Below are positions 8,082 to 40,240 of a DNA stretch of 64,000 nucleotides, one piece after another. Each line of letters begins with the position of its first letter. The first letter of the stretch is position 1. A program made the translations under genes and the position numbers. The stretch comes from Amylostereum areolatum (Eukaryota > Basidiomycota > Agaricomycetes > Russulales > Stereaceae): contig SAXG01000004.1 of assembly GCA_012932865.1 (NCBI GenBank), forward strand, positions 372,001 to 436,000, written 5' to 3'. A model generated the notes under the pieces. The model was given only the letters and a program-made list of their open reading frames with translations. It ran no database searches and was not told the DNA's origin.

Positions 8082-9325
8082 ATGACGCGTGGCCGGCCTG
8101 TCTCTGATGACCTTCGGGGGGTTCTTCTGACCATGGCCGCTCACGATTCGGCTCTGAATATCCACAAGCTCACCCAAGTTCCCCTTCGAACGATTCAAGA
8201 GATCCTCAAGGACTTCCGAGAGCGCCGACAAGTGTCACGGCGACGAGTGAGTCATGAGACACGCGGAGCGAACCGTACTTTGGTATTGGATGATGTACAG
8301 GTGCGTTGATGCTTCAGATCTGGCCCTGCCCTCAGCTGACAGCAACTCTTCCATATGCTCCAGTTTCTTCATGGCTGGGTAGGTTACCGTCCGGACGCCT
8401 TCCTTGATGAGATGCAGGAGCTCTTAGAGACCAGACGTGGGGTCTCTGCGAGCCCATCAACAGTATGGAGAGCACTGAAACGTAGTGGGTACACAATGAA
8501 GAAGGTGCGCATGTGTATACTACACTATCCTTCTCGCTCCTACGATGCCAGCTCTGACCACTGCTCTTTGTTAGATGTCTCGTGATGCCCTCGAGCGTAA
8601 CGAGGACAAAAGATCGGAGTATCGCTACCTTTATGGTAGCCAATACACTCCCGAGCAGACAGTGTTTGTCGATGAGAGTGCCTTTGACCGCCGAACTGAT
8701 ATACGAGGCTACGCATGGGCTCTATCAGGCAAGCGTGCCGTTCGGTGCTGTTTTTTTGTCCGCGGAAAGAGGTCTGTGTCTATTTGTGTCTGCTATCTGG
8801 TGCCTGTTAACACAGAATGGTGCTAGATACTCCCTTCTACCTGCACTAGGCCTTGACAGAGTTGTTTATGCAAAAATCATCGAAGGCTCATTCACCTCAG
8901 CGCGTTTTCGGGTCTTCATAGAAGGTTTACTTGATCGTATGCAACCATATCCTGCTCCGTGCTCGGTCATCGTGATGGATAATGCCCGCATTCACAAGGA
9001 TGCAGAGACTATGCAGATGATCCAGGATAGGTGAGCTGCCTAAGCATGACTATCATAGCCTTGTCCTCATATTGGGTGAACTAAATGTAATAACAGGGGG
9101 ATGCGGGTGCTATTCCTCCCACCATATTCTCCTGATTTGAACCCAATTGAATTGGGCTTCTCGGAGATGAAGGCACGTGTCCGTCGGGAGAGGATTCTTG
9201 GTCGAGAGGATGTTGATCAGGTTGTTGATGATACTTATGTTTATACTCATCTCTATGATGTTGCCTACACTACTATCACAGCTAGTCATTCTGCGGGGTT
9301 CTTTCACCACTGTGGTTATATCTAA
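8082..9325 (+). CDS. Tc1/mariner-like DDE transposase (DD34E)
   Basis: Cut-and-paste transposase of the DDE_3 type. Six exons joined by five short introns give one open frame. N-terminal helix-turn-helix region: NIHKLTQVPLRTIQEILKDF; then GYRPDAFLDEMQELL and a second HTH-like part SASPSTVWRALKRSGY. Catalytic core: FVDESAFDRR (first D), RYSLLPALGLD, VIVMDNARIHK (second D), PPYSPDLNPIELGFSEMK (E), with 34 residues between the second D and the E. It ends HSAGFFHHCGYI, the aromatic/Cys tail common in this group. No stop or frameshift was found, so it may be active. An upstream ATG at 7950 lies within the TIR; I chose 8082 because homology starts there and 7950 has no family-like sequence. Confidence 0.88.
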
Positions 9326-10783
9326 AATAAAGTTGAACTTCACATTGGTGCATGCACAGGAAGATTATGTAAAACTGGTAAAAAAGTATCATACGTGAAG
9401 ATATAACTTTCGCAAACTTGACAGAAAAAGGGTAACACTTAGTTGCCCTCAGTCACCCTACAACTTGTCCACATCCTCAGCAACATACTGGACTAAACGA
9501 TTAGCAATCCCCCACGGAATCTTTGTAACTTCCGCAAGTTTGTCCGTATCCAAACCACATAGATCACCAAGATCAAATAATCCCTGGCCAACGAATTGCG
9601 GAACGTACTGCGAATAGTTAGGAGAGCGATGGCCTCGGTATGGATCACTATCCAACAACGTGAACCACTCTTCGATTCCAGGGTAGTCAAGCGGGGCATG
9701 ACGCTTGGCTGGAACAACAGCTCGATGGACTGGTGTCAAGTCAGGTCCTGCAGGTGGGGTGGGGGTGGATGGTGGAAGGGAAGGAGGCGGAGCCATGAAT
9801 CGTTGAGCAACATTGGTGGCAAGCTCAGCCCAAAAGTCGACTGCACCACCTGCACTTGTGTTCGATAATGGAGCCTTAGTCTTGACGAGAGCTTGGCGAG
9901 AGATTTTATCCTCAAGGTTGAGTTCAGGAGGCGGAAAATCTATAGTAGCCTTGTACTTGGCCTATGAACACATCAGACATTGCCTTTATCATGAGAATAG
10001 AGACATACCACCAGGTGAGCCCATTTCGCGAGGTCCTCCGGAGTGTACTTGTAGTGAACTCCGTTTGCTTGGATCAAACACGGCACCTTGTCTGTCTGGC
10101 AACGATGCTTGTTCTCGATGAGTTTCATGATCTCTAGCTCCTTCGCATCATGGTCAGCGAGTGCTGCCTTATCAGGCACAGCTGTGCGTGGAGCGGGTGG
10201 TGCAGGTTTCGAGTTCTAAGCCCAAGGTTAGAATCACGAGATGACTATCATACTACAACTCACCTTCCCGCCCCGCCCCATGGTGGAGGCCTCAGTTGTA
10301 TCCCGCAAGATAATATGCCATGGCTTGACTACACCTTTCCCGCTCTTCTTACTCTGACTCTCTGAAATATGATAGCTCACGTTCCGAATGAGAACACGCC
10401 AGCCCTTATCGTCAAAAGCCATTGGGGTTGCCTTGGCCAGCTCGCTCTTCGGGAGATAGGAGGGAAGGTATCCAAAACCAGAGATAAATGATATTGATGT
10501 GCCCATGCATAGTGCAATTGCAGCTAAGACTTGTGCGAAGGGGGTGAGGGAAGTGACTTTCGAGTCATTGCTTTCGAGGACACGGACAGTGTTGCCAGCA
10601 GGTACGGGTACCAGGAATTCAATTCCGAACTCGGAAACCTCTTCTTCTTCAGTGGGAAGGGTGTCTGAACACAATGAGCCTAAGAAAGTTGCATAGTTCG
10701 TCAAGAATAACGCACCTGAAGCCGCCGACGAGCCATCCACATCCGCATATGGGTCATCCTCCATCAGCAAAGTCGGCTGAGCT

Positions 10784-10932
10784 TCGCGATGCATGGCCAG
10801 GGCCTCACGATGCATCGCGAGACCCACCATGCCACCACGCACCGATGATGCCACCATGCACCACTGGTGCACCTGCCGGTTCCACCATATCCGCTATATC
10901 CTACCATACTGGTGGAATCTGGCCAGTATGGT
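10784..10932. repeat. Subterminal hairpin cluster of the nested Plavaka element
   Basis: Three perfect inverted repeats within 150 bases of the left end: TCGCGATGCAT at 10784-10794 with its complement at 10810-10820; TGCACCA at 10857-10863 with TGGTGCA at 10865-10871; ACCATACTGG at 10903-10912 with CCAGTATGGT at 10923-10932. Subterminal repeats are the usual transposase-binding region in CACTA-related elements; that role is inferred here. Confidence 0.6.
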
Positions 10933-38982: not shown

Positions 38983-39148
38983 GTTTCTCGAACCTTTATA
39001 ATGTTGCCTAATATTTTCTGTACATACACCATGCTGTCCTGACCCCCCACTCTTTACTACACTGCATAACCTTCCGCTAACCTACTACTCCCTCATCTGT
39101 CGCATAATCACCTCTGTCCATACATCTACCCCACGTTCGTTACCTACT

Positions 39149-40240
39149 TTACGAATACCCGCAGTTTGTAATCCAGCCAATGGCATCTTCATTCGTTATT
39201 TCTTCCATAGCAAGATGGATGGGTTCAGCGCGCATGTGAGGTCCAGTGAAGTGGCTTTCATTACGGCGCAAGAAGGCTTTGATACTACTGAAAGCTTGCT
39301 CGATGGGATTCATGTCGGGGGAGTATGGTGGTAGGTATATAAGCTTTGCACCTGTCATTAAAACTGGTTAGTATACCTTGAAGCCGGAGCTTTCAGACAG
39401 CACAACGCACCACAGTCATTCTCAATGATCTCCCGCACTTCGTCTCCATGATGAAAGGCAACATTATCCATGACTACCACAGAATTACGGCTTGGATTGT
39501 CTGGAGTATATGAGTTGAGAAGGGGTGCCTATATGAGCACAACACAGGCATAAGCATGACACAGACATCCAGAAGAAATTGAAGCGTACAACATCCTCCC
39601 GCAGAAAATGGAGGAACCTCTCACGGTTGACTGATCCTTCGAGAAGATCCAAAGCAATGATCCCATCACAGGAGAGCACTGGGAGCATTGTCAGGCGTGT
39701 GCCATGGAAGAACAGGTCACGGCGGACGCATGCAGATCCCAGTGGTGCCCTTCCCATTGTCCGCTGATGTGCCCGATCATCCACCCCAGATTCATCCAAC
39801 CAGACTATGCTCTCCATGGGTATATCCCCCCAAGCTGCATCCCACATTGCGCGAACGGCATCGTTTCGTTCCAATGCCTCCTTTGATATCCGCTTGTGAG
39901 TGAGAGCAAGGCTGCGAACAGCGCGGGCGACGGTTGCAAGTGAAACGTACACTCCGAGCTCCTTGTCAAGACGGTCTTGAATCTCGTCAAGAAACATTGC
40001 TGGCTCTTGGACCAACCAGGAGTTGATGGATGTGAGCTCTCCAAATGAAAGGATGCGGGAGCGGCCATGGGACAACAGTCCATGGGGACTATGCACTGAA
40101 CCTGTCTCGCGATAAAGGCGGAGGATTTCATAGACTGTGCTTTTTGAGCACTGCGCGAGTTCAGTGATCTCGGAGACTGTAAAACGCTCCCGCCATTCGA
40201 CAATGCGTTCTCGAAGTTGAGGGTTAAGGGGAGGTGCCAT
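39149..40240 (-). CDS. Tc1/mariner-like DDE transposase (DD35E)
   Basis: Three exons. N-terminal HTH: VSEITELAQCSKSTVYEILR, followed by LYRETGS; second part FLDEIQDRLDKELGVYVSLA then TVARAVRSLALTHK. Core: VWLDESGVDDRAHQRTMGRA (first D), DLFFHGTRLTMLPVLSCDGI, SVVVMDNVAFHHGDEVREII (second D), IYLPPYSPDMNPIEQAFSSI (E), 35 residues between the second D and E. Ends GWITNCGYS, like the Cys-Gly-Tyr tail of the element 1 enzyme. No stop or frameshift seen. Start at 40240 is 80 bases inside the right TIR. Likely active. Confidence 0.88.

What the first reader, a model, noticed from the sequence alone, without database searches (positions are those of the whole stretch)
8082..40240. Two unrelated elements share a transposase plus convergent accessory gene: a possible two-component transposon type
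Seen: elements 1 and 2 have different TIRs and diverged transposases (DD34E and DD35E), yet each carries one other gene in convergent order. Both accessory proteins contain C..D..C/H...C...GH...L..WA.AV followed by T..(F/Y)PP, a proline-rich linker and a SAM-like C-terminus. Known: most Tc1/mariner elements encode only a transposase. Inference: the accessory protein is a conserved partner, for example for target choice, end pairing or host interaction. I know of no name for it.
Basis: partly seen in the sequence, partly recalled or inferred. Interest (0 to 1): 0.88.

Follow-up and report, generated by a model that had tools for sequence, protein, structure and literature searches.

The report
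Two-gene Tc1/mariner transposons with conserved partner
In the genome of a wood-rotting fungus, eight families of Tc1/mariner jumping genes each carry, besides the enzyme that moves them, a second gene of one shared family facing it, whose protein is predicted to bind zinc and stick to itself and so likely helps the element move.

Summary
The finding holds and extends beyond the window. Element 2 (36367-40392) is a 4,026-bp TA-flanked Tc1/mariner element with 78-bp TIRs and 33 copies, each with transposase (T2, DD35E) and accessory gene (A2) convergent. Element 1 is really 7651-19091, with 405-bp TIRs. It sits in a TTAA inside the DNA polymerase delta gene, and a Plavaka transposon splits its accessory gene (A1); an uninterrupted A1 lies on contig C102.

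A1 and A2 share a homologous Cys/His-WA-PP domain: a profile made without A1 finds A1 at E 1.3e-4 (best background 2.4), though the A2 lineage alone does not. Genome-wide, 48 of 56 transposase hits have a convergent accessory within 1 kb, in eight families; 39 of these are copies of elements 1 and 2. Two families (E6, E8) were found blind to position.

A low-confidence model of a relative suggests a PB1-like N-domain and a SAM/HhH-like C-domain, hence an oligomerising partner. Function is inferred. Exceptions: seven transposase hits with no partner detected, one strong orphan accessory and three weak hits. Other fungal genomes could not be scanned. New variant of a known kind.

The parts
7651..19091 (.). 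Element 1 (E1), Tc1/mariner; inserted at a TTAA with TA duplicated, inside the DNA polymerase delta catalytic subunit gene; contains a nested Plavaka element
   Evidence: copies on C164, C98, C102, C113, C34; flank overlap TA; polymerase flanks
7651..8055 (+). Element 1 left TIR, 405 bp
   Evidence: 99% identical to the reverse complement of 18687-19091
18687..19091 (-). Element 1 right TIR, 405 bp
8082..9325 (+). T1 transposase, 334 aa, exons 8082-8300, 8364-8504, 8575-8775, 8816-9030, 9097-9325; DD34E
   Evidence: PF13358 2.4e-27
9458..10762 (-). A1 accessory gene, 3' part: exons 9458-9961, 10009-10215 (Cys/His-WA domain), 10264-10664, and 10716-10762 (end of exon 1)
   Evidence: splice sites and open frame; intact copy in C102; homologue P0001
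18211..18635 (-). A1 accessory gene, 5' part of exon 1 with the start codon, cut off by the nested insert
   Evidence: same N-terminus in P0001 and in the C102 copy
10763..18210 (+). Nested Plavaka transposon that interrupts A1 (not part of the two-gene unit)
   Evidence: absent from four of the five other element 1 copies, shared with C113; PF18759 6.9e-12 and 2.2e-7 in two frames
36367..40392 (.). Element 2 (E2), Tc1/mariner, 4,026 bp including TA at both ends; 33 copies in the genome
36367..36444 (+). Element 2 left TIR, 78 bp
   Evidence: 97% identical to the other end
40314..40392 (-). Element 2 right TIR
36936..38982 (+). A2 accessory gene, 575 aa, exons 36936-37056, 37105-37500, 37554-37779, 37838-37973, 38026-38085, 38138-38323 (Cys/His-WA domain), 38380-38982
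   Evidence: GT-AG introns and open frame; homologues P0002-P0005
39149..40240 (-). T2 transposase, 323 aa, exons 39590-40240, 39411-39528, 39149-39351; DD35E
   Evidence: PF13358 8.2e-26

Best explanation
These are Tc1/mariner transposons in which the transposase gene is paired, tail to tail, with a second gene whose protein is predicted to be a self-assembling, zinc-type partner that likely helps the transposase build or place its working complex on the element's ends. Shown here: the linkage in eight families of one genome, the homology of the central Cys/His-WA-PP domain, open reading frames in nearly all examined copies of a recently multiplied family, and TA-flanked TIRs. Predicted from a low-confidence model of a relative: a PB1-like domain and a SAM/HhH-like domain either side of the Cys/His core and a linker. 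Inferred and untested: that A and T proteins act together, that the Cys/His domain binds zinc and that it and the RGRxGP stretch touch nucleic acid, and that the PB1-like and SAM-like parts polymerise to bridge ends or anchor the complex to chromatin. The transposases look complete by themselves (HTH domains and DDE triad), so the partner would add efficiency, pairing or placement rather than chemistry.
For: Linkage: 48 of 56 transposase hits with a convergent accessory within 1 kb, in eight families E1-E8. E6 (4 copies) and E8 were found by a position-blind query. Homology: A1-free profile finds A1 at E 1.3e-4; hhalign beats 60 of 60 shuffles. Retention: of 30 element 2 copies examined, A2 is open in 29 and T2 in 28. 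Relatives of A2 with the same invariant residues occur in Amylostereum chailletii, Dentipellis and Mycena. Architecture: PB1-like, Cys/His, SAM/HhH-like in the model. T1 and T2 have HTH and DDE_3 domains of their own.
Confidence: 0.48

Rival explanations
1. Anti-silencing or host-interaction factor: the accessory protein protects the element's genes from the fungus's silencing, without taking part in transposition.
For: Other fungal DNA transposons carry extra genes thought to act against DNA methylation (TET/JBP; PMC12730594, passages). Transposases here look complete alone. Element 2 has multiplied recently to 33 copies.
Against: No catalytic or chromatin-reader domain was recognised. The predicted domains are of the assembling kind.
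Confidence: 0.24
2. Regulator: the accessory protein restrains or times the transposase, like a repressor or a dose control.
For: Two assembling domains could titrate transposase (inference). Convergent genes of this layout could also make antisense transcripts (described for MuDR in PMC3440606, passage).
Against: Element 2 is in a recent burst with A2 open in 29 of 30 examined copies, which a strong repressor would oppose.
Confidence: 0.12
3. Passenger: an old captured gene that rides along without helping the element.
For: Seven transposase hits have no partner detected. Within element 1, A1 and T1 variants give no clear sign of selection, and A1 is interrupted or incomplete in several copies.
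Against: Kept in eight families whose transposases are as low as 31% identical or barely alignable and in relatives from other genera, with invariant Cys, His, Trp.
Confidence: 0.08
4. A1 and A2 are unrelated proteins with a chance motif, each picked up separately.
For: The A2-lineage profile alone scores A1 at background level (E 0.57, rank 7), and the N- and C-terminal parts do not align.
Against: With E3, E5 and E7 in the profile A1 stands out (E 1.3e-4 against 2.4 for the best background frame and 0.25 for the best reversed frame), and hhalign beats all 60 shuffles.
Confidence: 0.04

Closest known systems
Tc1/mariner superfamily (DD34E Tc1, DD35E and related)
   Same: DDE_3 catalytic domain, HTH N-terminus, TIRs, TA duplication
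   Different: Carries a second, conserved gene and is about 4 kb long; typical members encode a transposase only (recalled; PMC7325037, passages, says organisation is flexible)
MuDR of maize (mudrA/mudrB; PMC3440606 and PMC3276141, passages read)
   Same: Two convergently transcribed genes between long TIRs, a transposase and a protein of unknown function
   Different: Another transposase superfamily; mudrB is reported only in the genus Zea, whereas this partner is shared by eight families in one genome and has relatives in other fungal genera
Fungal DNA transposons with TET/JBP or alpha-kinase genes (PMC12730594, passages read)
   Same: Fungal DNA transposons with extra genes thought to serve the element
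   Different: Other superfamilies (Kyakuja, Zisupton, IS3EU, hAT) and other accessory proteins; the word mariner does not occur in that paper
Ciliate Tec/TBE elements (PMC7325037, passages read)
   Same: Tc1/mariner-related elements with further genes
   Different: [quoted passage not shown] no relation to this accessory family was tested
MarorTcMar-18 of Marasmius oreades (PMC9674265, passages read)
   Same: Mushroom mariner-type family, 3,972 bp, close to the length of elements 1 (without insert) and 2
   Different: Its gene content was not seen; a lead only

Membership tests
Tc1/mariner transposon (elements 1 and 2) | DDE_3-type transposase with DD34E/DD35E-type spacing | tested here: met
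   PF13358 2.4e-27 and 8.2e-26; 34 and 35 residues between D and E
Tc1/mariner transposon (elements 1 and 2) | TIRs with TA duplicated at the target | tested here: met
   Element 2: TA at both ends with different flanks in the copies. Element 1: flanks overlap by TA within TTAA
Tc1/mariner transposon (elements 1 and 2) | Transposase as the only gene (usual, not strictly defining; recalled) | tested here: not met
   A1 and A2 convergent within the TIRs
MuDR / Mutator | Mutator-type transposase | tested here: not met
   T1 and T2 match DDE_3; no Mutator-type family was listed
PB1 domain protein (A2 lineage) | Match to the Pfam PB1 profile | tested here: not met
   No PB1 family listed for any of seven accessory sequences at E 5
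PB1 domain protein (A2 lineage) | PB1 fold | tested here: inconclusive
   [not shown]
SAM domain protein (A1, A2) | SAM fold at the C-terminus | tested here: inconclusive
   [not shown]
Accessory family defined here | Cys/His...WA...PP domain shared by A1 and A2 | tested here: met
   only through intermediates
Accessory family defined here | Zinc binding by the Cys/His residues | not testable with these tools
   needs protein
Plavaka (nested insert in element 1) | Plavaka transposase domain | tested here: met
   PF18759 6.9e-12 and 2.2e-7

The most novel reading that the evidence does not exclude
A large, old lineage of Tc1/mariner transposons in mushroom-forming fungi is truly two-component: transposase and a PB1-Cys/His-SAM scaffold have been inherited together since before the DD34E and DD35E branches parted, and the scaffold polymerises on the element to build the transposition complex, so that neither protein suffices alone.
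Probability: 0.3. Interest if true: 0.82.

Novelty: new variant of a known kind. Interest (0 to 1): 0.7.

Why it matters
Tc1/mariner is the textbook one-protein transposon and the basis of gene-delivery tools (recalled). A branch that keeps a second gene of one family in eight lineages of one genome would show that this superfamily, too, has multi-component members. It also names a protein family without a Pfam match as a transposon component rather than a 'hypothetical protein'. Element 2, with 33 copies, most of those examined nearly identical and open in both genes, is a ready test system: does T2 move a reporter with and without A2?

Tried and rejected
The first A1 model started inside the nested insert. 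Its N-terminal residues then matched copies of that insert: 16 of the 28 rows cover only the first 50 residues or fewer. These rows were left out of the tallies. The error was found through P0001 and corrected from C102.

The A3 protein (E3) was used with a stretch of 17 or 18 residues trimmed as a presumed intron, although it has no clear GT donor; this concerns. The frame is also open without the trim.

Some true-looking hits are individually weak: E5 at E 0.11 and E8 at 0.002 or 0.24, in the range of the three weak hits away from transposases (0.009, 0.16, 0.32). Position, and for E5 a direct reading, sets them apart. A strict motif scan missed the E3 and E5 accessories. Selection on element 1 copies was too weak to read: T1 10 nonsynonymous to 4 synonymous variants, A1 14 to 10 with one stop. 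The single-sequence model of the A1 C-terminus was useless. C-terminal queries from E7 and E1 found only themselves and copies. The PDB sequence search with the A2 lineage gave one weak hit, E 0.44. In viral contigs 46 stretches matched a pattern but none encoded a relative. An intact polymerase delta exon was sought and not found in this assembly; the genome paper says that heterozygous contigs were removed (passage).

Literature: ten full-text searches, of which I saw the listings and then passages of some papers, did not turn up a conserved accessory gene in fungal Tc1/mariner elements. The library lacks most subscription papers, a fungal transposon survey was not held, and Repbase was not searched, so this is not proof that none is in print. 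PMC8533490 and PMC8290104 held none of the terms asked for; PMC7386202 gave passages without a second gene. PMC3435246 (passages) reports a PB1 exon in plant genes derived from Mutator-like transposases, a remote parallel.

Rejected: chance motif. Not tested: whether the four accessory hits away from Tc1/mariner lie beside other kinds of transposon, since their surroundings could not be read.
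Full report
WHAT THE WINDOW HOLDS. The window is C117:372001-436000 of a 57.13-Mb assembly in 182 contigs. Contig lengths 3,099,494 (C1) and 731,813 (C99) equal the longest scaffold and the N50 of the published Amylostereum areolatum genome (PMC7227769, passages and section 7 read), so I take that to be the host. Its sister A. chailletii gave the closest protein homologues.

ELEMENT 2 is 36367-40392, 4,026 bp with TA at both ends and 78-bp TIRs. 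On the minus strand it encodes T2 (323 aa, three exons, 35 residues between the last D and E). On the plus strand it encodes A2 (575 aa, seven exons with GT-AG introns). The two meet tail to tail. The genome has 33 A2 last exons and 33 T2 hits, one pair each. Twelve fetched copies are 98.5-99.95% identical to the window copy; nine of the 12 differ from it at two to four places, and two of these places are shared by all 12. Of 30 copies examined for frames, A2 is open in 29 and T2 in 28. A TIR search had 65 first-look candidates, of which 40 were scored and 41 matches listed, against 66 ends expected of 33 full elements. That gives no sign of short derivatives, but the listing is capped.

Comparison with other copies shows 405-bp TIRs at 7651-8055 and 18687-19091. 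T1 (334 aa, five exons, DD34E) is open. A1 is cut in the window by a 7.45-kb insert carrying a Plavaka transposase. Four of the five other copies (C164, C34, C98, C102) lack that insert at this site; C113 shares it. In C102 A1 reads as one open 526-aa frame after splicing. The C164, C34 and C98 copies match the window's A1 5' exon only in part, and A1 in C113 carries a stop. Element 1 interrupts the gene for the catalytic subunit of DNA polymerase delta. The flanks, joined across TTAA, match the two sides with an overlap of exactly TA, and the joined peptide matches the exonuclease domain at 67.3 bits, the 3' side alone at 47.1.

ARE A1 AND A2 HOMOLOGOUS? Seven accessory sequences align with invariant C, C, H, WA and PP. 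A profile of the A2 lineage alone finds the E7 and E5 accessories (E 3.2e-4 and 9.2e-4), then E3 (0.067), but A1 only at background (0.57, rank 7; best reversed frame 0.27). With E3, E5 and E7 added and E1 still left out, A1 scores 1.3e-4, the best background frame 2.4 and the best reversed frame 0.25 (2,870 frames from the window and 14 chosen loci). hhalign of the A2 lineage against A1 and against A3 aligns just this domain, and none of 60 shuffles reaches either score. Domain homology is therefore supported through intermediates. The N- and C-terminal parts are not joined by sequence.

IS THE PAIRING GENERAL? The DDE_3 matches in the genome (61 exon-level rows) and a T4 search (55 rows) were merged by hand into 56 hits. 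Accessory hits (52) came from the A1 and A2 searches and three short Cys/His queries. Forty-eight of the 56 transposase hits have a convergent accessory within 1 kb: E1 6 of 6, E2 33 of 33, E3, E4, E5, E7 and E8 one each, and E6 4 of 5, the fifth hit apparently being the other half of an element split by about 7 kb. Forty-eight of the 52 accessory hits are so placed. Thirty-nine of the 48 are copies of elements 1 and 2, so the family count (eight) matters more than the locus count. E3, E4, E5 and E7 accessories were recognised by reading beside the transposase, which is biased. E6 and E8 were found blind to position, and the E7-based query returned E1 copies, E5 and E8 among its 12 rows. Under uniform placement two or more of four family-level blind hits would land so with probability about 1.4e-6.

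Against: seven transposase hits (C139, C148, C32, C117:32 kb, C8, C158, C1) have no partner detected. The rows for C32, C117:32 kb, C8 and C148 list stop codons. The C1 hit is a partial DDE_3 match at the end of a 777-aa frame, and the 9.9 kb around it gave no accessory hit above background. C138:166244 is a strong accessory hit (E 5e-20) with no transposase hit within 7 kb; three more are weak (E 0.009 to 0.32).

OTHER FAMILIES READ HERE. E3 (C138) has TIRs of about 90 bp and E4 (C100) of about 75 bp, with multi-exon accessory genes open on the opposite strand. The E5 accessory has a stop before its conserved stretch. E7 has the Cys/His domain and a proline-rich stretch in two frames.

The order of divergence is similar for both genes. 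By identity to T4 the transposases run E6 and E2 (56-59%, apart from two damaged E2 copies), E8 (41%), E5 (38%), E7 and E3 (31%), and E1 (36-38% over at most 67 aa). The accessory domains run E2, E4, E6 (47-59% to the consensus), E8 (46% over 28 aa), then E7, E5, E3 and E1 by profile score. This fits joint inheritance more than repeated capture, but no tree was made.

COMPARISON. The layout is that of MuDR (convergent mudrA and mudrB; PMC3440606 and PMC3276141, passages) in another superfamily. Fungal DNA transposons with extra genes are known (PMC12730594, passages), but I did not find Tc1/mariner with a conserved partner in the ten searches listed under Tried and rejected. A Marasmius oreades mariner-type family of 3,972 bp (PMC9674265, passages) has the right size and should be checked. 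I rate this a new variant of a known kind.

Noticed in passing
window 7571-7653 and 19089-19171 (and on to about 20699): Element 1 interrupts the DNA polymerase delta catalytic subunit gene at an exon end; no intact version of that exon was found in this assembly, so a second nucleus or a removed haplotype may hold it.
   Followed up: partly
window 10763-18210: Nested 7.45-kb Plavaka element with 19-bp end repeats (CATCAGCAAAGTCGGCTGA) and a target duplication of 2 or 3 bp; its ends recur elsewhere in the genome.
   Followed up: partly
G000:C113:124606-129473 (L006, L010, L016): A second copy of element 1 shares the nested Plavaka insert but jumps at window position 8056 to 17135, which looks like a rearrangement, a further insertion or an assembly error.
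   Followed up: no
Element 1 and E3 ends (window 7651 and 19091; C138): Five of five element 1 ends examined, and E3, have T before and A after the duplicated TA, as if they target TTAA; element 2 copies show no such preference.
   Followed up: partly
G000:C138:166244-166390: Strong accessory-domain match (76% to the consensus) without a transposase hit within 7 kb: a relic, a solo gene or a domesticated copy.
   Followed up: partly
G000:C99:485201-493700 (L068, L069): Two element 2 copies lie head to head about 50 bp apart.
   Followed up: no
G000:C99:217043-226107: An E6 element appears split by about 7 kb of inserted DNA between the two parts of its transposase.
   Followed up: no
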